Shown: piece after piece, positions 1,440 to 31,882 of the stretch
Layout: each line of letters opens with the position of its first letter
Numbering within the stretch: the first letter of the stretch is position 1
Source: Candidatus Poseidoniales archaeon
GTDB lineage: Archaea > Thermoplasmatota > Poseidoniia > Poseidoniales > Poseidoniaceae
Assembly (NCBI GenBank): GCA_013911465.1
Contig: JACETE010000004.1
Coordinates: forward strand, 1-35,444
Direction: 5' to 3'
DNA: 35,444 nt
Program-made: the position numbers and the translations under genes
The notes under the pieces: model-generated
What the model was told of the DNA's origin: nothing
The model's input: only the letters and a program-made list of their open reading frames with translations
Databases searched by the model: none

Positions 1440-2060
1440 ATGTCAGACAAGATATTTACAGTTCACGTAGCCAAAGAGACCGGGCATGAGCAAATTGCCA
1501 TGACCCGTCAAGACATCGTAGACACGGTGTCAGCAAACGAAAACACATGGGTCTTTGTTGATTCACAAATGGTCAACGCACAAGAACTCGAAACCATCGA
1601 TTTGAACGATGCAACCGAGATTCGTATCAACCCAGGAATGGTTGGAGGTTCTGAAACCTTCACCGTCCTTGTGGCAAGCGAAAAAGGCGACCAAGCAATG
1701 CTCATGACCAAGCAAGAGCTCGCAGGCGAGTTGACAAACAACCAGGGCAACTGGCTCTTTGTCGATGGCCAAATGGTTGACGCAGCTACTATTGCAGACA
1801 CAGACCTCAGCCAAGACAATGTCTTGCGATTGGTTCCGTCCATTGTGGGCGGATCTGAAACCTTCACGGTTCAGATTACGGACGCCTCTGGACATTCGGT
1901 TTGCGAAATGACCAAGGAAGAAATCGCAACGAGCGCAAAGGAAGCCAACAACTGGGTTTTCGTTGACGGTCAGATGGTTGATGCAAACGCCATTGCAGAA
2001 ACGGACCTTGCACAGGCGACAGAGATTCGCATGACAAGACCGCTTGTTGGCGGCCTTTGA
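1440..2060 (+). CDS. Triple tandem ubiquitin-like (beta-grasp) repeat protein, candidate polyubiquitin-like precursor
   Basis: 206 aa = three modules (1440..1649, 1650..1853, 1854..2057), each starting with an (I/T)FTV strand and ending VGG. Consensus W(V/L)FVD(G/S)QMV(D/N)A..I..TDL....(L/I)R...VGG matches the ubiquitin C-terminal half in ungapped register. Final residue after GG is Leu. Confidence 0.8.
   Translation: MSDKIFTVHVAKETGHEQIAMTRQDIVDTVSANENTWVFVDSQMVNAQELETIDLNDATEIRINPGMVGGSETFTVLVASEKGDQAMLMTKQELAGELTNNQGNWLFVDGQMVDAATIADTDLSQDNVLRLVPSIVGGSETFTVQITDASGHSVCEMTKEEIATSAKEANNWVFVDGQMVDANAIAETDLAQATEIRMTRPLVGGL
1650..1853 (+). repeat. Second UBL module of the tandem repeat protein (68 aa)
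   Basis: SETFTVLVASEKGDQAMLMTKQELAGELTNNQGNWLFVDGQMVDAATIADTDLSQDNVLRLVPSIVGG; about half identical by eye to module 3 and clearly similar to module 1. Confidence 0.85.
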
Positions 2061-2112
2061 GTTCGGAAATTTAACGGACAGGTTCAAAACCAATGGGTCG
2101 GTCGGTTTGGCT

Positions 2113-2274
2113 ATGTCGGAACTTGTAGACTACAAGTGTGCGCTTTGTGGCACCCACGAAAGCTTTGACCGTGAGCGAAACGGAATCCACTGCAGTCACT
2201 GTGGATCAAAGATCTTCATGAAACTCCGCCGTAGCAGCGGAGACCGAAAGAAGAAGACGCTCAAGGCAGAGTGA
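2113..2274 (+). CDS. rpoP: DNA-directed RNA polymerase subunit P (Rpb12-like zinc ribbon)
   Basis: 53 aa MSELVDYKCALCGTHESFDRERNGIHCSHCGSKIFMKLR...: CxxC...CxxCG zinc ribbon with the typical Rpb12 IxCxxCGSKI(F/L) block. Confidence 0.85.
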   Translation: MSELVDYKCALCGTHESFDRERNGIHCSHCGSKIFMKLRRSSGDRKKKTLKAE

Positions 2275-2317
2275 ATTCACACAAATGGTCAAAGACCTTT
2301 GTCGCTGATTGGTTAGC

Positions 2318-3442
2318 ATGGCGAGTTGGCTTGAGTCGTACCCGCCACGCCGTTTCTCAGACTTAGCTCTTGAAGAATCAACAATTGATACCATAGAGCG
2401 CGTAGCTCTACAAGCCAATCCCCCTCACCTGTTGATATCAGGTCCACCTGGCTCAGGCAAGACTGCTACTTGGAACCTTATCGTTCGCCAAGTACTCGGC
2501 CCTTCATGGCGTTCAACAACCCACGTGTTGCAAGCAAAAGATCTCGCAAAGTCAGCGGGTGCAATGGCCGCCTTCGAAGCATTTCTGCGACCGGGTGGTA
2601 AGGATTCAAGCGATACTTTAGCCAGCCGAACATCACTCGATGCATTCGATTCAACATTCTCCCAAGTATCGGACGATGATATTGCCCCCGCAGGACACGA
2701 ATCTCAACGTGGAACACAAACTGAAGCCCACATATCAAGAATCATCGTTATTGAAGATGCGGATTATCTTGGCCACAAACGGCAACCTCTCTTGCGAAGG
2801 ATGATGGAGGCAACAAGTCAGACCTCGCGATTCATTTTTACCGCACAAACACCATCGCGATTGATCGATGCACTTCGTAGTCGGACACAACACATACGTC
2901 TGACAGGAGTTCCCAGGAAGCGAATAGAATCCAGACTCGCAGAACTCTGCTCAGCAGAAGGCATAGAACCAGTTCGCGGAATTCTTGGGGACATAGCACA
3001 CATCTCGGAAGGAAATCTCAGGAAGGCTATTTTCACGACAGAAGTACTTGCTTTACGAGAACTACTCGGGCAAAGAGAAAACCTTCACCGTCTCCTCACC
3101 ATGATCTCAACCAATGAAGTGCAACGGATGATAGAGGCCGCATTACGAGGCCAAGTTGTTGAATGGCGATGGGAGAAAGACGGTTACAAGAACGCTAGGA
3201 AACTCAAAGGGGCGTTAGGGATCTATGACGAGATCATCTCCAAACAGAGTCTTGAAGCAGAGGATGTTGTTGAGCAGGTGCATCAAGTCCTCACAGGCGG
3301 CAGGCTCAACCTACCAGAGCATCAATTGACCCTTGCACTCAGTGCGTTATCGGATTGCGATGTACGCCTGCGACGCTCTTCTCAAGGGCGAATACAAATC
3401 GAGCAAATGCTGCATGAATTTGCCGCAATGAAGCAACAGTAA
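2318..3442 (+). CDS. Divergent replication factor C (clamp loader)-like AAA+ ATPase
   Basis: Walker A SGPPGSGKTAT; IIVIEDADYLGHKRQPLLRRMMEATSQTSRFIFTAQTPSRLIDALRSRTQHIRL resembles RfcS Walker B through SRC region; RFC-type C-terminal helices. ORF also extends to a TTG at 2309. Confidence 0.75.
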   Translation: MASWLESYPPRRFSDLALEESTIDTIERVALQANPPHLLISGPPGSGKTATWNLIVRQVLGPSWRSTTHVLQAKDLAKSAGAMAAFEAFLRPGGKDSSDTLASRTSLDAFDSTFSQVSDDDIAPAGHESQRGTQTEAHISRIIVIEDADYLGHKRQPLLRRMMEATSQTSRFIFTAQTPSRLIDALRSRTQHIRLTGVPRKRIESRLAELCSAEGIEPVRGILGDIAHISEGNLRKAIFTTEVLALRELLGQRENLHRLLTMISTNEVQRMIEAALRGQVVEWRWEKDGYKNARKLKGALGIYDEIISKQSLEAEDVVEQVHQVLTGGRLNLPEHQLTLALSALSDCDVRLRRSSQGRIQIEQMLHEFAAMKQQ

Positions 3443-9598: not shown

Positions 9599-9687
9599 AA
9601 ACGGCTTCCTGATGCGTTTTGAATCTGACGCGTGAGGGTCGCGATTAAGTAGTGGTGAATACACGTTCTCGTTACACAGGTGGTACT

Positions 9688-12600
9688 ATGCGTCAAACAA
9701 CCAAATCGATAACTCTCGTCAGTCTATTTCTGCTATCCTTATTTTCAGGAATGGTTCTTGGAACAGAACAAGCAGAAGCATCTCAAGTTGTCATCACCGA
9801 AGCAGTGCGAGTTGTCGACGGTGGAACAGCCTCCGACAGTCAAGCGGCTGTGGCATCCGATAGTGAAGGAAACGTCCACATCGTATGGGCCAGAAACACA
9901 CAACATCTGTACTACTCGATGATTTCGCCACGCGGTGAGACCCTGATTGACGCCACTCAAATCACAAACCCCGGACTTCACAAGGTCTGGCATCCAGATA
10001 TGGTTGTTGACGACAACGATCGAATCCACCTGGTCTGGGCCGATAAATCCGGCCAACATAAGATCATGTACACGTCTCTCAACCCATACCTCGCACCACT
10101 CGACGGTATGGCCGCAGAGGACACCGCAATCTCAGTCATTGATGACACCATCATTTCGATGCGTGCTCAAGACCGCGATTGGCCATCCATCGATGTTGAC
10201 AGTCAAGGAAACCTCCACATCGCTTGGCAGGATTCGTACGATGAACTTCAACGATTTTTCAACCAACCCCAAATCTACTACACCATGCTCCAACCAGAAT
10301 TTAGTGGTGGTTCCGTACTCACATTGTTCGAAGACACATTGCTAACTCCAATCATTGGCCACAAAGGCCATCCTGACATTGTTGTCGACTCCAATGACTT
10401 GGTTCAAATCGCATGGGATGACACCCGTGGAGGCAAGGTCGAACTCGTCTTCCTCGTCGATACATCCGGTTCGATGTACTCCGAATGGGCAGATGTTTGT
10501 ACAGTTATTTACGGCGGTAACTTTGCTGCTGGCGGTTATTTCCAAGGACTCAAGCCAATGCTCCAAGAAGGAAACATGACGGTTTACGAAACCATTTACG
10601 GTCTCGGTAACACTCTACCAGGCGCTGCAAGCAGCGGAAACTGTGCAACCCACAACCAGAACGCAGGCCCCCGGCCAACTGCTCTTGGAATCGTCGATGG
10701 TGATGACTCCGGCGGTATTCGAAAACTCCCAGGAACTGTTTACAACGGAAACACGTACTCTGGATACTCGGGAGAAGACTGGGGCCCTGGAACTAACTGG
10801 GCCTGTCTGTCATGGAAGGACGCTCAAGGCAACGTTCCAGGAAACCCTCCAACACAAGACGACCACAAGTGGAATCCAAACGCAACCAAGATCGCAATCC
10901 CAATTTCTGATGAAGGTCCAAAGGACGGAGACCCAGCACAACAAGCAGACGACACGACTTCGATCGAAGAAGCACACGACAACTGTGTCAACGCTGGTGT
11001 CGTACCTGTAGGGATGTATGGACAAACCTACGGAGGCGCAACAAGCGTCCAATCCCACTTCAAGGATCTCGCCCAATGCCCGAACGGCGTTCAGAGCGTA
11101 GCTGCGCGCAACTGCCCAGGCAACACGATTCGTTCAACCGATGCTGGTGGCCAAGTTTACGAATTCCCATCCGGTAGTGGCGGTGCAAGCCAAATGTCAC
11201 TCCTTGTCGAAGCAATGGTTTACATTTCAACCAACAACTCTCGAGAAATCTACATGTCTGTTCTTGACCCATACGGCAAGATGAACAACGATCCAAGTTG
11301 GACACCAGGTGTCTCAGGAACCGTTGCTCAGAACGGGGGGTATGTCGAAGATACTGGAAAAGGATCCGAAGGCCACCTTGTTGTCGTGAACGACACACGT
11401 GTCACAATTGATGACGCATACTCATTCCACCCATCCATCGGTGTTGACATGGAAGGAAACACCCACATTGCTTGGATGGACGGCCGAGACTATGGATTTG
11501 AGAAGGACGTTAACTACGAAATTTACTACACAAAACTGCGCCTTCAAGGCGCTGGTGAATTCGATGGTCGCGATGAGGGACTCTCCACCTACGCCATCAA
11601 GAAAATCAACGATACTCCGATTTCCAACGTTGAAACCAATGCAGGCTTGCCACAGAATGCTCCATGGGGCGGCAACTCCGTCTTCCCGTCGCTCCTTACT
11701 GACGATCAGAACCAAATCCACATTGCTTGGGTTGATTCTGGAAACACCTCTGCAGGTGAGGAACTCCTCTACGTACGATTGAACCACACCTCTCTCGAAG
11801 GCGATGGACTAACAGCTCTTGACCCATGGGAATCTGTTGCAATCACCTCTTGGGCTTCGAACAAATTAGGTCCAAATTCAGGATATAAGCCAAGCATCGG
11901 TATGCCGCCAGCCTTCTCAAACGATTTGGGTAGCGGCGCTCACGTGGCTTGGTCGGATACGAACAAGTGTAACGATGAGACCAACAACAACCGGTTCACG
12001 GTCTGTTATTCTCACGTATTGACTGGACAAGTCGATGTCGAATTCGATGATGGAGAGACGTTCTATCACGTGATTGAACCCGGTGAGCAAACCATCTACA
12101 ACTTGACAATGAACAATTCAACACCTGGTCCGAAGGACTTGGTTGCAGATACCTATGGACTCAACATCACAGGTGTTCCAACCAATTGGACGGCAACGCT
12201 GTTCTTTGCAGACAACCACACTGCGATTTTCCCTGATACTGAAATCTTCCTTGAGGGTGGAGAATCAATCCGATTCTACCTCCGAGTTCGAGCACCTTCG
12301 ATCTACCAAGCTGGCGCCGATGAGTTAGCAGAAATCCGTGTGGATGCAAAGTCCTACAAGGACCCTGCAATCCGCTCCGAGATTACAACACTCACGCTCA
12401 TGGACGTTGTCCACGGAATCGACCTCGATGCATCGCACAGTGTAGCCGACGTTGAACAGGGCCAAACCGCGATTTTCTCGATTACAATCACCAATACCGG
12501 GAACGTTGCTGATACCTTCCTCTTCTGGGACCCTCAGACTCTCGAAGGTCGTCAAGAGTGGCTTCTGCCGTTCGCTTGGGACGTCAACTTCCCTCTTAGT

Positions 12601-14697
12601 GTACAACTCGATCCACAGCAAACTGTGACCAAGAATCTTGAGATTAATGTTCCAACCTCTGAAGATCCAGGGGCCTTCGTTATCTTGCTGAAGGGTTGGT
12701 CTGCAGGCGAACCTGTCAAGTCTGTTGAGAAAGGAACATACGATATTCTTGAATTGGGTGTCTTCGTTTCAATTCGCTCTTCGAACAACATTGTGTTCAA
12801 CATTACAGACCAAGAAGCAATGGTAACGCCTGCTCCGTATGCTCCGAATGCACTCGATCCGAATTGTCATGTATTCGAAATTGAAGTCGAGAAATACTTC
12901 GATACCGGCGACCTTGTCTTTACAACTCCAGGCACAACTGAAAATGAAGACAATTGGACTACAGAAGTTATCTTCCCGAACGGGCTCAATTTGAACCCTG
13001 ATGGCGTATCCTATCCTTGGGTCCTCATGTCAGGCGATGACTATCGAATGCACGTTGTGAAGGTCAAGATCTGTGCACCAGATGATGCCCCTGCGGGCCT
13101 CGGAAAGGCAGTGACAATCAAGGCAAATCTCAAGGGCTATCCTAAGATTTCAGCAGCCAAGATTCTGCAAGTCGACGTTGATCACGTCTACCAACTCAAG
13201 ACCGACGTTGCTCTCGTTGATGATGAACAACTCACCGTCAATCCTGGTGACGCCATCATTCTCCCAACCACAGTTAGCAACAACGGAAATGGTCCAGACC
13301 GATTCGATTACACCCTTGCACGGGTAACCGATTCCTCCGGAGTTGATGTCATTTGGGACATTACCATCCCTCGTAACACCCTAGAAGAACTCGATTCGGG
13401 CTCATCTCAAACCTTTGAGGTTCTCATGGACATTCCACAGCAAGTCCCTGCTGGCGACTACACAGTGGTTTTCCACACGAAGTCCGAACAAAAGGATGAG
13501 GATGCATCAGGACGTATGACTCGCTTGCGAGACATTACAACATTGACAGTTACAGTCCGTGAATTCCATGATATGCAAATCACCATGGACCCGACTGTAG
13601 AAAACGATGTCAAGACTTCTGCACCTGGTCGTGTTGTACGATTCATTGTCAACATCACGAATGCAGGAAACGTTCCCGATGTTCCGACCCTTGACAATCA
13701 CACTTCCATACGCTCAGGCTCAGACATTACAGTCAACGAGGAACCTGGAATGGGAACACTTGCTGGTTGGGATGTCGATTGGCGAATGATTCGTCAGGTT
13801 GGATTGGATCTCGAAAGCGAGGAAGATTGTGTAACAACACTCTCGACTGCAGCATCCTACCCAGAGGACAGCTGCGTGTACTTGTCGGACATTGATGAAT
13901 GGAGACTACCAGAAATGGACCCATATCAGACATACACTATGGTTGCAGTCGTATCCATTGACCCCGGAGCACAGTTGCTCACTCGAAGCCTCGGCCTCAA
14001 GGTTGTCTCGATGATGGGTAACGCTGACGAAGGTGGCGACCATGATGATTCCGCATCATGGGTTGGCGATCTGTTGGATTCCAACGAGAAGATTGTGACC
14101 ATCAACCTCCGTGCACCGGACCTCGTTGTGAAGTCAGCCTCGACGGATGTCACTTCCGCAGATGTTGGTGAATCAATCCCAATCCGTATTGAGATTGCAA
14201 ACACAGGAAACGTTCACGCTTCAGATATCGAAGTCATTCTTTGTGAGTACGATGATGATGACATGATGAAAGAAATTCGCAAGAACAACAACATGTGTGA
14301 TGAAGAGAGTATTGTCATGCGCCAGATTATTGGTGCATTGGACAAGCCAGACGATTCTCAAACAGAACGCGTAATCGAGTTGTACATGCTTTACCCAGTT
14401 ACTGCAGGTAGCAAGAACGTCTACGTCGTTGTTGACCCAGGAAACACTATCGTTGAAGCAAATGAAGGCGACAACATCGTCCGAATTTCAACCGAGCTCG
14501 GTTCTTCGAACCCATTCTTGGACGTTGCTGGCGAAGTTGCTGGTAAGGTTGCACTACCGACCATGATCGTCTTGCTGACCTTCTCGCTCTTCGGTGTCTT
14601 GTACCTCGTTGGTCGAGGCCGCCGTGCTGCAGTGAAGGATCGAATCGCTGAACAATCGTCATTGATGTCTGTTCTTGGTGATGAAGCCGACGCGTGA
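9688..14697 (+). CDS. Giant secreted/surface protein: signal peptide, beta-propeller-like repeats, embedded von Willebrand A domain, CARDB/NEW3-like Ig domains, C-terminal TM anchor
   Basis: SITLVSLFLLSLFSGMVLG signal; repeated D..GN.HI(A/V)W motifs; VELVFLVDTSGSMYSEW (MIDAS); several NTGN/NAGN domains (NTGNVADTF, NNGNGPDRF, NAGNVPDV, NTGNVHASD); C-terminal TMIVLLTFSLFGVLYLVGRGRR. Confidence 0.85.
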   Translation: MRQTTKSITLVSLFLLSLFSGMVLGTEQAEASQVVITEAVRVVDGGTASDSQAAVASDSEGNVHIVWARNTQHLYYSMISPRGETLIDATQITNPGLHKVWHPDMVVDDNDRIHLVWADKSGQHKIMYTSLNPYLAPLDGMAAEDTAISVIDDTIISMRAQDRDWPSIDVDSQGNLHIAWQDSYDELQRFFNQPQIYYTMLQPEFSGGSVLTLFEDTLLTPIIGHKGHPDIVVDSNDLVQIAWDDTRGGKVELVFLVDTSGSMYSEWADVCTVIYGGNFAAGGYFQGLKPMLQEGNMTVYETIYGLGNTLPGAASSGNCATHNQNAGPRPTALGIVDGDDSGGIRKLPGTVYNGNTYSGYSGEDWGPGTNWACLSWKDAQGNVPGNPPTQDDHKWNPNATKIAIPISDEGPKDGDPAQQADDTTSIEEAHDNCVNAGVVPVGMYGQTYGGATSVQSHFKDLAQCPNGVQSVAARNCPGNTIRSTDAGGQVYEFPSGSGGASQMSLLVEAMVYISTNNSREIYMSVLDPYGKMNNDPSWTPGVSGTVAQNGGYVEDTGKGSEGHLVVVNDTRVTIDDAYSFHPSIGVDMEGNTHIAWMDGRDYGFEKDVNYEIYYTKLRLQGAGEFDGRDEGLSTYAIKKINDTPISNVETNAGLPQNAPWGGNSVFPSLLTDDQNQIHIAWVDSGNTSAGEELLYVRLNHTSLEGDGLTALDPWESVAITSWASNKLGPNSGYKPSIGMPPAFSNDLGSGAHVAWSDTNKCNDETNNNRFTVCYSHVLTGQVDVEFDDGETFYHVIEPGEQTIYNLTMNNSTPGPKDLVADTYGLNITGVPTNWTATLFFADNHTAIFPDTEIFLEGGESIRFYLRVRAPSIYQAGADELAEIRVDAKSYKDPAIRSEITTLTLMDVVHGIDLDASHSVADVEQGQTAIFSITITNTGNVADTFLFWDPQTLEGRQEWLLPFAWDVNFPLSVQLDPQQTVTKNLEINVPTSEDPGAFVILLKGWSAGEPVKSVEKGTYDILELGVFVSIRSSNNIVFNITDQEAMVTPAPYAPNALDPNCHVFEIEVEKYFDTGDLVFTTPGTTENEDNWTTEVIFPNGLNLNPDGVSYPWVLMSGDDYRMHVVKVKICAPDDAPAGLGKAVTIKANLKGYPKISAAKILQVDVDHVYQLKTDVALVDDEQLTVNPGDAIILPTTVSNNGNGPDRFDYTLARVTDSSGVDVIWDITIPRNTLEELDSGSSQTFEVLMDIPQQVPAGDYTVVFHTKSEQKDEDASGRMTRLRDITTLTVTVREFHDMQITMDPTVENDVKTSAPGRVVRFIVNITNAGNVPDVPTLDNHTSIRSGSDITVNEEPGMGTLAGWDVDWRMIRQVGLDLESEEDCVTTLSTAASYPEDSCVYLSDIDEWRLPEMDPYQTYTMVAVVSIDPGAQLLTRSLGLKVVSMMGNADEGGDHDDSASWVGDLLDSNEKIVTINLRAPDLVVKSASTDVTSADVGESIPIRIEIANTGNVHASDIEVILCEYDDDDMMKEIRKNNNMCDEESIVMRQIIGALDKPDDSQTERVIELYMLYPVTAGSKNVYVVVDPGNTIVEANEGDNIVRISTELGSSNPFLDVAGEVAGKVALPTMIVLLTFSLFGVLYLVGRGRRAAVKDRIAEQSSLMSVLGDEADA

Positions 14698-29822: not shown

Positions 29823-31817
29823 TCAGTTCAAGACCTCTTCAATACCGGTTTCGACTCCAAGTTGAAGTGGAAGCATTTCCAATTCGTAATTGTTGACGTT
29901 GTTGTTTGCAGACCAAGCCTTGGCCCAATCATCGAGATCGCGTTGATTCAGCTGTTCGCACATCCATTCGAGTGCCTTCTGTAAATCGCCTTTGGTTGCG
30001 GCAAGTCGAGTAAGGATTGCTTGATTCATTTCGATGTGGTTTACACTGTTTCCGAGAATGCAACCTTTTGGAATGACTGCCCAGCGCAATCGACGCTCTT
30101 GGTGCGCATTGACAATGGCTTGGCATGCGAGACGTGGGCCATAGGATTGCACTTCGCTTTTACCAGACCACATAGCCAATTGGCGTTCATTTGCACGTGA
30201 AGGGATGTCCTTACGGAAAGCCGGGTGACGGATGTAAACGCCCCCTGCCTCGTCTTCAGTAAAGTGTACGCCACGGATGAACGGACGTGATGACTTTGTT
30301 TTGTCCCAACTAGAGATGTTGCTGGAGTGGGCGGTTTGATCGATTTCCCCAACACGTACCTTGACTGTTTGTTCTTGGGTAGCAAGCCAATGATCACGGT
30401 CGCCAAGTCGTGGCAGTTGGGACATATTATCAAGGATTTTGAGAATGTTCTTCCTTTCGATTTGATCACGTGGCAATCGTGGAATAGCCCATGTATTTCG
30501 TGCCCACTGAACCCATTGGGATTGATTGAGCGAGAAGGTAGGGACTCGGGATGAGAGCCCAGTCCCAACACGACGGAGATCGGAACGGGTAACTGGGCCA
30601 ATGATGTTCAGGCTTTCTGTGCCGTTTGGTGTCGATGAAATTCCAAGAATTGCAACACCTTGAGTCATACCTGGGAACAGGAGATTTGCCTCTTCAATAG
30701 CCCAGACTTCGTTCCATGAGTGCTTCTCGACGAGGAGTTTTCTCAGAGGGTGAGAGGATTGCTCGCGCAGGAGGCTGTCTGGAGCGACGATACGCATCTT
30801 TCCTTCCTGCGAGAGAACTTGCATTCCTCGCTCGATGAAGAGTCGGTAGAGATTGACGTTTCCACGCATGGTCGAGAAACGAGGCCCATCAGGATTGGTT
30901 AGGCTGCGAAGCTTCTCGCTCAAATCCTTGCGACGCTGAGAACCGTCTTCCATTCCTCTGAATCGATCTTTGATTCGCAACCAAGGAGGGTTGGAGATGA
31001 TGAGACGAGGAGATTCGTCCCATGGCCAATCTTCCTGAAGTGTGTCGCATGAGATGATGTTCTTTTCGAGAATTTCTTCTGCCAAACTCCGATTCAATTT
31101 TCCTTCTTGTTCACCGGATAAGGCGACGAGATCAAGTCGAATGGCTTCGAGCAGCAAACGCCTACGGGTCGATGATACAACGAGTTCGTCGACGTCGACG
31201 AGTTGGAAACCACGGAGCAAACGTTCTGTGTCTTCCTTAAGCAATTCAGAACTTTGTCCTTCGAACAATTCACTGTGCTTTCGGAGCATACGGGCATGGA
31301 AAATTCCACCGCCGCATGACATGTCAGAGAACGGTAGAGGAATTCCACTGCTTGTTCGTTCATTGTTTTTGACAGCATCAAGAGCACTTTCATCGAGGGT
31401 GACTTCTTCTTCACTTGGTGGGAAGTTGAGCTTCTTGATGTGCTTCTGGAAGCCAGGAGGAAGGTCTGCAAGATGCATGTTTGTTGTCTGCTTCTTGACC
31501 TTTGGCTGAATAGTCGTCTCAAGCAGTTCAGAGGAAATAATTGAATCTGCAAGTCGAGGAGGAGTCGGGTGTGCTCCACGAGGGGAGCGACCATCAGACT
31601 CGGCATCGTGACGTGCTAGGAGATGGTCGAGAACGTGACCTGGGTCGGTCAAGAGATTTGCTGGAAGGGTTGGCCAATCTTCAGGGAGAAGCGCAGCGAT
31701 AGGTTGGTGGGTACGAAGGGAGTTTTCCCAAGCATCGAGCCACATTTCGATTTGTGTTTTTCTATCGTTTAAGCATCGATCTAATCTCGCATACCAACCG
31801 CTAACTCCGTTTTGCAT
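29823..31817 (-). CDS. N6-adenine DNA methyltransferase (Eco57I/TaqI-like class)
   Basis: Motif I-like FSDMSCGGGIFHARML; motif IV LIISNPPWLRIKDRF; extended C-terminal region as in type IIG/TaqI-like enzymes. ORF extends to a TTG at 31844. Confidence 0.82.
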   Translation of the reverse strand: MQNGVSGWYARLDRCLNDRKTQIEMWLDAWENSLRTHQPIAALLPEDWPTLPANLLTDPGHVLDHLLARHDAESDGRSPRGAHPTPPRLADSIISSELLETTIQPKVKKQTTNMHLADLPPGFQKHIKKLNFPPSEEEVTLDESALDAVKNNERTSSGIPLPFSDMSCGGGIFHARMLRKHSELFEGQSSELLKEDTERLLRGFQLVDVDELVVSSTRRRLLLEAIRLDLVALSGEQEGKLNRSLAEEILEKNIISCDTLQEDWPWDESPRLIISNPPWLRIKDRFRGMEDGSQRRKDLSEKLRSLTNPDGPRFSTMRGNVNLYRLFIERGMQVLSQEGKMRIVAPDSLLREQSSHPLRKLLVEKHSWNEVWAIEEANLLFPGMTQGVAILGISSTPNGTESLNIIGPVTRSDLRRVGTGLSSRVPTFSLNQSQWVQWARNTWAIPRLPRDQIERKNILKILDNMSQLPRLGDRDHWLATQEQTVKVRVGEIDQTAHSSNISSWDKTKSSRPFIRGVHFTEDEAGGVYIRHPAFRKDIPSRANERQLAMWSGKSEVQSYGPRLACQAIVNAHQERRLRWAVIPKGCILGNSVNHIEMNQAILTRLAATKGDLQKALEWMCEQLNQRDLDDWAKAWSANNNVNNYELEMLPLQLGVETGIEEVLN

Positions 31818-31882
31818 AGTCCGCCCCAACCAGTGGGTATTCAATCATGGTTTGAATGTGCCTGTCAAAATCATGAAACGAT

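What the first reader, a model, noticed from the sequence alone, without database searches (positions are those of the whole stretch)
1440..2060. Candidate archaeal polyubiquitin-like gene: three head-to-tail UBL modules each ending in GG, with a one-residue C-terminal cap
Seen directly: 206 aa split cleanly into modules of 70, 68 and 68 aa with boundaries ...NPGMVGG|SETFTV... and ...VPSIVGG|SETFTV..., ending ...RPLVGGL-stop. Module 2 segment NWLFVDGQMVDAATIADTDLSQDNVLRLVPSIVGG aligns without gaps to human ubiquitin 42-76 [35 protein letters not shown] (about 10/35 identities by hand, including F45, Q49, D52, D58, L67, L69 and the terminal GG). Established knowledge: eukaryotic polyubiquitin genes encode head-to-tail monomers ending GG with an extra residue after the last copy; archaeal SAMP/Urm1-type UBLs end in GG and use an E1-like (UbaA/MoeB) activator and JAMM proteases. 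Inference: this could be a processed poly-UBL precursor or a fixed tri-UBL scaffold. Modules 2 and 3 are only about half identical, unlike homogenised eukaryotic repeats, so the three UBLs may have distinct roles. No lysine sits at positions equivalent to ubiquitin K48 or K63, which argues against ubiquitin-type chains at those sites.
Basis: partly seen in the sequence, partly recalled or inferred. Interest (0 to 1): 0.93.

Follow-up and report, generated by a model that had tools for sequence, protein, structure and literature searches.

The report
Archaeal poly-ubiquitin-like precursor gene
A marine archaeon carries a gene that strings three ubiquitin-like units head to tail, each ending in the Gly-Gly tag and capped by one extra residue as in our own polyubiquitin genes, and its relatives keep it together with a dedicated activating enzyme and a metalloprotease, which points to a little-studied ubiquitin-like protein-tagging system in one of the ocean's commonest archaeal groups.

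Summary
In detail: 1440-2060(+) encodes 206 aa, three modules (38-49% identical) each ending in GG, plus a Leu cap. AlphaFold gives a ubiquitin beta-grasp for each module, with confidence collapsing exactly at the three GG tails. Foldseek's best hits are ISG15 and di-ubiquitin.

The family is confined to Poseidoniales (Marine Group II), with 1-4 modules per gene. Every module join ends in the same motif as the gene's last module: 64 multi-module genes are GG throughout, 13 are AG throughout, none mixed. 107 of 109 complete genes carry extra residues after the last G.

Partners exist: a short PRTRC-type E1 with invariant Cys, an adjacent JAMM protease with intact motif, a small helical protein, and a new domain (A9) with one invariant Cys. 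They are joined by fusions: UBL-E1, E1-JAMM, UBL-A9. UBL and E1 co-occur across 146 genomes (71 both, 64 neither, 11 discordant). A9 is in 41/41 UBL-positive and 1/23 UBL-negative genomes. The window's genome holds all four.

Best reading: a capped poly-UBL precursor, cut by the JAMM into monomers that the E1 activates for protein conjugation. Cleavage, conjugation and A9 as E2 are inferred. New variant of a known kind.

The parts
1440..2060 (+). tri-UBL gene (206 aa), the poly-ubiquitin-like precursor
   Evidence: ORF and translation; orthologues with the same start; dN/dS 0.07-0.12; AlphaFold/Foldseek
1440..1649 (+). UBL module 1 (aa 1-70), ends MVGG
   Evidence: module HMM 106 bits; strands 5-12, 15-22, helix 23-32, strands 37-40, 43-45, 61-64 in the model
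1650..1853 (+). UBL module 2 (aa 71-138), ends IVGG
   Evidence: module HMM 96 bits; 10/35 identities with ubiquitin 42-76
1854..2054 (+). UBL module 3 (aa 139-205), ends LVGG
   Evidence: module HMM 99 bits; beta-grasp elements 141-199
2055..2057 (+). one-residue C-terminal cap (Leu) after the last GG
   Evidence: 107 of 109 complete relatives have at least one residue after the last G; within the genus it is L, F, Q, I or I plus three residues
2113..2274 (+). neighbouring gene: RNA polymerase subunit P (Rpb12-like zinc ribbon)
   Evidence: Pfam PF03604, 3e-5, just over its cut-off; lies about 80-300 bp downstream on the same strand in nearly all stand-alone poly-UBL loci with room
2309..3442 (+). 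neighbouring gene: replication-factor-C-like AAA+ ATPase
   Evidence: Pfam AAA, RFC lid and Rep_fac_C matches

Best explanation
The gene is a poly-ubiquitin-like precursor of a dedicated ubiquitin-like modification system of Poseidoniales. It is translated as three beta-grasp modules on flexible GG tails plus a cap residue. The JAMM protease encoded next to the E1 cuts after each GG and removes the cap, releasing three UBLs with free C-terminal glycine (inferred). The short PRTRC-type E1 adenylates that glycine and takes it as a thioester on its invariant cysteine (inferred from family and conserved residues). The UBL is then passed to target proteins, perhaps through the invariant cysteine of the A9 domain (weakest step), and the JAMM also reverses the modification. 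Shown here: fold, motif conservation, gene fusions and gene co-occurrence. Inferred: cleavage, activation, conjugation and the E2 role of A9.
For: Fold: each module has ubiquitin topology, and pLDDT falls below 50 in segments only at residues 67-70, 135-138 and 203-206, the three tails; top Foldseek hits are ISG15, E 1.7e-5. Boundaries: multi-module genes share one motif at internal and terminal positions, 64 GG and 13 AG, none mixed; caps in 107/109. E1: hhalign to PRTRC ThiF 99.5%, E 1.6e-22; profile hits Uba1 2e-12 and NEDD8 E1 5e-12; invariant GxGGxG, DxDxV, N, K, D and Cys. JAMM: invariant Glu and HxHP...S..D in ten members. Linkage: di-UBL-E1 in one ORF (L081 6789-8063, L083 10539-11780, L099), E1-JAMM in one ORF (L085, L089, L238), UBL-A9 in one ORF followed by E1 and JAMM (L245). 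Co-occurrence: 71/4/7/64 in 146 genomes; A9 in 41/41 UBL-positive and 1/23 UBL-negative genomes. The window's genome has E1, JAMM and small protein at G000:C11 (L090 418-1861) and A9 at G000:C14 (L203 4987-7263).
Against: No experiment. In the window's genus the poly-UBL gene is not next to its E1/JAMM. Its modules differ by half their residues, so one E1 and one protease would have to handle three different UBLs. A9 matches no known E2 by Pfam, PDB profile or PRTRC_B comparison, and its fold prediction failed (pLDDT 34, two sequences). Di-UBL-E1 fusions could also mean a UBL that stays attached. The AG switch is probably one evolutionary event, and its two modules are 63-85% identical, so gene conversion could have copied it. 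The co-occurrence test ignores shared ancestry.
Confidence: 0.7

Rival explanations
1. Fixed tandem modifier, as ISG15 or bacterial BilA: the protein is only trimmed of its cap, and the whole tri-UBL is conjugated through the last GG. Internal GG are flexible hinges.
For: Foldseek's nearest structures are ISG15, a two-UBL modifier; modules 1-3 in this genus have diverged to 38-49% identity, as distinct roles in one chain would allow.
Against: Internal boundaries keep the full motif and change to AG together with the terminus, never alone; module number varies 1-4 between related genera, which a fixed architecture would not tolerate easily; f2 genomes use single capped modules with the same kind of E1 and JAMM.
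Confidence: 0.18
2. Sulfur carriers: the UBLs are activated to thiocarboxylates for tRNA or cofactor thiolation, as ThiS, MoaD or Urm1, and are stored as a poly-precursor.
For: E1 is of ThiF type; in three genomes read, E1 lies near a TYW1-like radical-SAM gene of tRNA modification.
Against: This E1 has no rhodanese domain in the ORFs read, and nearly all genomes searched carry a separate ThiF-family protein of 390-440 aa, presumably the MoeB/UbaA type; a dedicated JAMM lies beside the short E1 wherever the neighbourhood was read; whole genera lack UBL and E1, unlike a core thiolation pathway.
Confidence: 0.07
3. Non-conjugated repeat scaffold: tandem beta-grasp domains used only for binding, the GG tails being structural.
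For: Some tandem beta-grasp proteins (talin FERM, USP7) are scaffolds and appear lower in the Foldseek list.
Against: Strict terminal and internal GG/AG, caps, fusion to E1 and A9, tight co-occurrence with E1.
Confidence: 0.05

Closest known systems
Bacterial type 6e polyUbl operons (Iyer, Burroughs and Aravind 2006, PMC1779556)
   Same: One to three head-to-tail UBLs of about 70-75 aa; E1 and JAB, often fused; a further protein to which the UBL can be fused (E2/RWD-like there, A9 here); metal-binding-type neighbour proteins
   Different: Archaeal; the JAMM is C-terminal to the E1 when fused (N-terminal in 6e); the E1 is closest to PRTRC ThiF among the curated models; A9 has an invariant Cys while the 6e E2/RWD domain lacks one. 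Internal GG and cap could not be compared with 6e here
Bacterial PRTRC system / type 6d (NCBIfam TIGR03736 and partners)
   Same: E1 is a clear relative (99.5%, E 1.6e-22) including the SC[SQ] Cys motif; JAB, UBL and a helical protein in the same gene set
   Different: UBL and A9 are not recognisably related to PRTRC_C and PRTRC_B (hhalign); JAMM only weakly (15%); PRTRC_C is a single UBL ending in KG or KGGDA in the three read; no ParB seen in the MGII clusters read. Equating PRTRC with type 6d is my own reading of the gene content
Caldiarchaeum subterraneum pro-ubiquitin with Rpn11/JAMM, E1, E2, RING (PMC5654768, PMC6043591)
   Same: Archaeal UBL made as a capped precursor, JAMM maturation, E1 activation
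   Different: Single UBL with a nine-residue extension rather than a 1-4 module precursor; its E1, E2 and RING belong to families not recognised in the parts studied here
Eukaryotic polyubiquitin genes (UBB/UBC, UBI4)
   Same: Head-to-tail monomers, GG at every join, extra residue(s) after the last copy, variable copy number
   Different: Copies here are 28-100% identical depending on lineage; not ubiquitin by sequence (about 29% over 35 residues); different E1. USP and UCH proteases were not searched for
ISG15 and bacterial BilA
   Same: Tandem UBL modifier, nearest by fold search (ISG15)
   Different: Two modules, internal join not a conserved GG cleavage motif (own knowledge)
Haloarchaeal SAMP / archaeal Urm1
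   Same: GG-ended beta-grasp modifier with E1 and JAMM in Archaea
   Different: Single-module, without cap and with UbaA/MoeB-type E1 (own knowledge); weak similarity only (SAMP1 model 18.9 bits against cut-off 60)

Membership tests
Ubiquitin-like beta-grasp modifier (UBL) | Ubiquitin-type beta-grasp fold | tested here: met
   AlphaFold topology and pLDDT 81; Foldseek ISG15 E 1.7e-5, prob 1.00. Whole-chain TM is low (0.2-0.3), which I attribute to free domain orientation
Ubiquitin-like beta-grasp modifier (UBL) | C-terminal GG (or G) on a flexible tail | tested here: met
   169/169 last G, 167/169 penultimate G among aligned modules; pLDDT <50 at tails
Ubiquitin-like beta-grasp modifier (UBL) | Covalent attachment to proteins via an E1 | not testable with these tools
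   E1 present and fused or adjacent in relatives; conjugates not shown
Polyubiquitin-type precursor | Head-to-tail modules with GG at each join | tested here: met
   64 genes GG throughout, 13 AG throughout, none mixed
Polyubiquitin-type precursor | Extra residue(s) after the last copy | tested here: met
   107/109 complete genes, 1-19 residues, mostly 1-6
Polyubiquitin-type precursor | Variable copy number between relatives | tested here: met
   1-4 modules
Polyubiquitin-type precursor | Proteolytic release of monomers | not testable with these tools
   needs a cleavage assay; candidate JAMM has an intact motif
Eukaryotic ubiquitin | Significant sequence match to ubiquitin | tested here: inconclusive
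   ubiquitins are the best PDB sequence hits of the module profile but single copies only E 0.13-1; poly-Ub E-values are inflated by repeated weak hits
Bacterial type 6e polyUbl | UBL repeats plus E1 and JAB in one system | tested here: met
   clusters L081, L083, L086, L237, L238, L245, L247
Bacterial type 6e polyUbl | JAB at the N-terminus of the E1, E2/RWD domain without Cys | tested here: not met
   JAMM follows the E1 (L085, L089, L238); A9 has an invariant Cys and no proven E2 fold
PRTRC / type 6d | PRTRC ThiF-type E1 | tested here: met
   hhalign 99.5%, E 1.6e-22; NCBIfam TIGR03736 2.9e-19, but 69 bits against a cut-off of 145
PRTRC / type 6d | PRTRC_C UBL and PRTRC_B E2 | tested here: not met
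   no profile similarity
SAMP | NCBIfam SAMP1 model over cut-off | tested here: not met
   18.9 bits against 60
E2 (UBC) family, for A9 | E2 fold with active-site Cys | tested here: inconclusive
   invariant Cys but no Pfam/PDB match and fold prediction unusable

The most novel reading that the evidence does not exclude
Poseidoniales run an independent ubiquitin-like conjugation cascade with a true polyubiquitin-style precursor and a new class of transfer enzyme (the A9 Cys domain, often with an N-terminal zinc ribbon) unrelated in sequence to known E2s. Poly-UBL precursors with GG joins and a cap would then have arisen or persisted in Archaea outside the eukaryotic lineage.
Probability: 0.35. 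Interest if true: 0.9.

Novelty: new variant of a known kind. Interest (0 to 1): 0.8.

Why it matters
In the archaeal ubiquitin-type systems described in the papers read, the modifier is made as a single copy; capped head-to-tail precursors are the hallmark of eukaryotic polyubiquitin genes. An archaeal gene with the same logic, in an abundant surface-ocean lineage far from Asgard archaea and Caldiarchaeum, would show that the poly-precursor design is older than eukaryotes or arose more than once. It also makes three things directly testable: whether a JAMM alone can mature a poly-UBL, whether a roughly 220-residue PRTRC-type E1 supports protein conjugation, and whether the A9 domain is a new transfer enzyme. 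No paper found in the searchable library describes this system; one survey mentions a single Marine Group II genome with a UCH and RING proteins (PMC4327156), which is something else.

Tried and rejected
Pfam, PADLOC and NCBIfam scans of the tri-UBL give no match over a curated cut-off, and PADLOC only chance-level hits. Poly-ubiquitin PDB hits at 1e-16 to 1e-24 were not taken as significance: they add up many weak repeats. Viral contigs: no UBL relative and no relative of the A9 protein, so no sign of a phage origin. PRTRC_C and PRTRC_B as homologues of the UBL and A9: rejected. A9 as a recognised E2: not established. The weak Prok-JAB hit of about 250 aa seen in the genomes searched is, in the two read, another JAMM-motif protein (HTHPNAPAIPSGAD), not the one beside the E1; it stays possible as a second protease.

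Full report
Observation. The ORF at 1440-2060(+) encodes 206 residues. It divides into modules of 70, 68 and 67 residues ending MVGG, IVGG and LVGG, followed by one Leu. Pairwise identities are 38, 42 and 49%, and the ungapped match of module 2 to ubiquitin 42-76 is 10/35, reached by 5 of 100,000 shuffles. The gene is under purifying selection (dN/dS 0.07-0.12 against four congeners), so it is a real protein and not a chance frame.

Fold. AlphaFold2 on 21 aligned homologues gives mean pLDDT 81. Each module shows the ubiquitin order strand-strand-helix-strand-strand-short helix-strand. pLDDT drops below 50 in segments only at 67-70, 135-138 and 203-206, that is, at the three tails. Foldseek against the PDB returns ISG15 for the first 15 ranks (best E 1.7e-5) and a di-ubiquitin derivative at rank 16. 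Whole-chain TM-scores are low, which I attribute to the free relative placement of modules. Sequence alone is weaker: ubiquitin is the best PDB family for the module profile, but a single ubiquitin scores only E 0.13-1.

Family. Closest relatives are all Poseidoniales. A scan of GTDB contigs found 98 relatives, the best 80 (78 loci) kept, nearly all named as Euryarchaeota, Poseidoniales or Thermoplasmatota, including the MG-II chromosome CM001443.1. An even sample of the phylum found the module only in this order (20 of 147 genomes). The order has two families here: f1, to which the window belongs, and f2. Genes carry 1, 2, 3 or 4 modules. f1 mostly has 2-3 modules; f2 has single modules in the cases read.

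The boundary test. If the modules are released by proteolysis, internal ends must satisfy the same rule as the terminal end. That is what is seen: among non-identical multi-module genes with a readable end, 64 have GG at every internal and terminal end, 13 have AG at every end, and none is mixed. The 13 AG genes are probably one clade and one event, and their modules are 63-85% identical, so copying by gene conversion is possible. The GG genes include many with modules only 28-45% identical, in which GG is kept while most other positions have changed. A further point is the cap: 107 of 109 complete genes have at least one residue after the last G (52 have exactly one), so nearly every copy is made in a form that would need trimming.

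Partners. All 24 UBL-positive genomes first searched have a ThiF-family match, and with a specific profile 71 of 75 UBL-positive genomes have a short ThiF-family enzyme, mostly 216-250 aa when stand-alone, distinct from a longer 390-440 aa ThiF protein. Its best curated model is PRTRC_ThiF, hhalign to bacterial PRTRC ThiF gives 99.5% and E 1.6e-22, and its profile, built together with PRTRC ThiF, finds eukaryotic Uba1 (2e-12) and NEDD8 E1 (5e-12) in the PDB. Nucleotide-binding motifs and one cysteine are invariant across archaeal and PRTRC sequences. Next to it, often overlapping by a few bases, is a JAMM protein with invariant Glu and HxHP...S..D, nearest in the PDB to AMSH deubiquitinases (E 0.003). 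A small protein of about 80-100 aa, helical by eye, usually follows. In the window's own genome these three lie on contig C11 (L090: 418-1083, 1080-1622, 1568-1861).

A fourth component. A domain here called A9 (about 110 aa, invariant Cys in a [LIV]C[IVL] motif, then GD and a stretch ending in D) sits in larger proteins, several with N-terminal CxxC pairs. It has no Pfam or PDB match. It occurs in 41 of 41 UBL-positive genomes tested and 1 of 23 UBL- and E1-negative genomes. The window's genome has one at C14 (L203: 4987-7263). Its apparent order of elements and single Cys would suit an E2-like transfer enzyme, but the fold prediction failed for lack of homologues that could be used (pLDDT 34). 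This remains a candidate.

Gene fusions. Three kinds of fusion tie the parts together: two UBLs plus E1 in one chain (L081, L083, L099), E1 plus JAMM (L085, L089, L238), and UBL plus A9 followed by E1 and JAMM (L245; A9 match 2.4e-8 when searched alone, 6e-4 among all ORFs). In f2 the parts form one cluster: for example L086 has AAA ATPase, A9 protein, UBL, second A9 protein, E1, JAMM; L237 has UBL, E1, JAMM and two A9 proteins.

Co-occurrence. In 146 Poseidoniales genomes (all but the window's own at least 80% complete), 71 have both UBL and the short E1, 64 have neither, 4 have only UBL and 7 only E1 (Fisher P 4.6e-28). Relatedness is not corrected for, but presence and absence alternate within both families and within several genera.

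Mechanism. The simplest reading is maturation of the precursor by the neighbouring JAMM, as shown experimentally for Caldiarchaeum pro-ubiquitin (PMC5654768, PMC6043591), then activation by the E1 and transfer to proteins. Shown here: fold, motifs, fusions, co-distribution. Inferred: cleavage, adenylation, thioester, transfer, substrates. The main rival is an ISG15-like fixed tandem modifier; the boundary motif and the variable copy number speak against it but do not exclude it.

Comparison. The system works like eukaryotic polyubiquitin (capped head-to-tail precursor) and like bacterial type 6e polyUbl operons (PMC1779556), but it is not filed as a member of either: the JAMM is on the other side of the E1, A9 has a Cys where the 6e partner lacks one, and only the E1 is clearly of the PRTRC lineage. 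It is best called a new archaeal variant of prokaryotic UBL conjugation systems.

Limits. The window's genome is 65% complete, so absence of further parts means little. UBL-negative calls rest on draft genomes. The literature library is open-access only, so an existing description elsewhere cannot be excluded.

Noticed in passing
window 1440-2274 and L105-L182: The poly-UBL gene lies about 80-300 bp upstream of the RNA polymerase subunit P (Rpb12-like zinc ribbon) gene on the same strand in nearly all stand-alone f1 loci, often followed by an RFC-like ATPase; it recalls eukaryotic ubiquitin genes fused to zinc-ribbon ribosomal proteins, but here the genes are separate.
   Followed up: partly
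L014 2128-2772 / L098 8154-8801: In one congener (G002) a second ORF directly after the tri-UBL gene starts with a degenerate UBL ending LVGG followed by about 140 further residues (PFCRAEIWNQVQ...), perhaps a UBL fusion or a partial duplication.
   Followed up: no
L073, L067 (G000:C18, G034:C1): Another JAMM-motif protein (about 250 aa, HTHPNAPAIPSGAD) gives a weak Prok-JAB hit; similar weak hits occur in all 24 genomes searched. Alternative processing protease.
   Followed up: partly
L086 4070-5473, L187 3-470: An AAA ATPase gene sits beside A9 proteins in two genera; possible unfoldase of the system.
   Followed up: no
L090, L081, L083: A TYW1-like radical-SAM gene (recognised by eye) lies within a few genes of the E1/JAMM in three genera read.
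   Followed up: no
L093, L094, L097 (G055:C66, G055:C8, G015:C295): Some genomes carry further ThiF proteins (268-524 aa) next to proteins of about 320-580 aa that look like AAA/CDC48-type ATPases; possibly a distinct UBL/E1/AAA system. In L097 the upstream 226-aa ORF begins with what may be another beta-grasp domain.
   Followed up: no
L109 (CALDQY010000169.1): A contig titled 'uncultured Rhodobiaceae bacterium' carries a tri-UBL 86% identical to the window's; most likely a misnamed or mixed MAG.
   Followed up: no
window 29823-31844(-): Eco57I-type restriction-modification methylase (Pfam 4e-11), possible defence gene.
   Followed up: no
window 9652-14697(+): 1681-aa protein with a CARDB domain near its C-terminus, probably a surface protein.
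   Followed up: no
L134 9938-10627: Modules 2 and 3 are 100% identical in protein sequence, against 28-49% in the window's genus: recent duplication or homogenisation in some lineages.
   Followed up: partly
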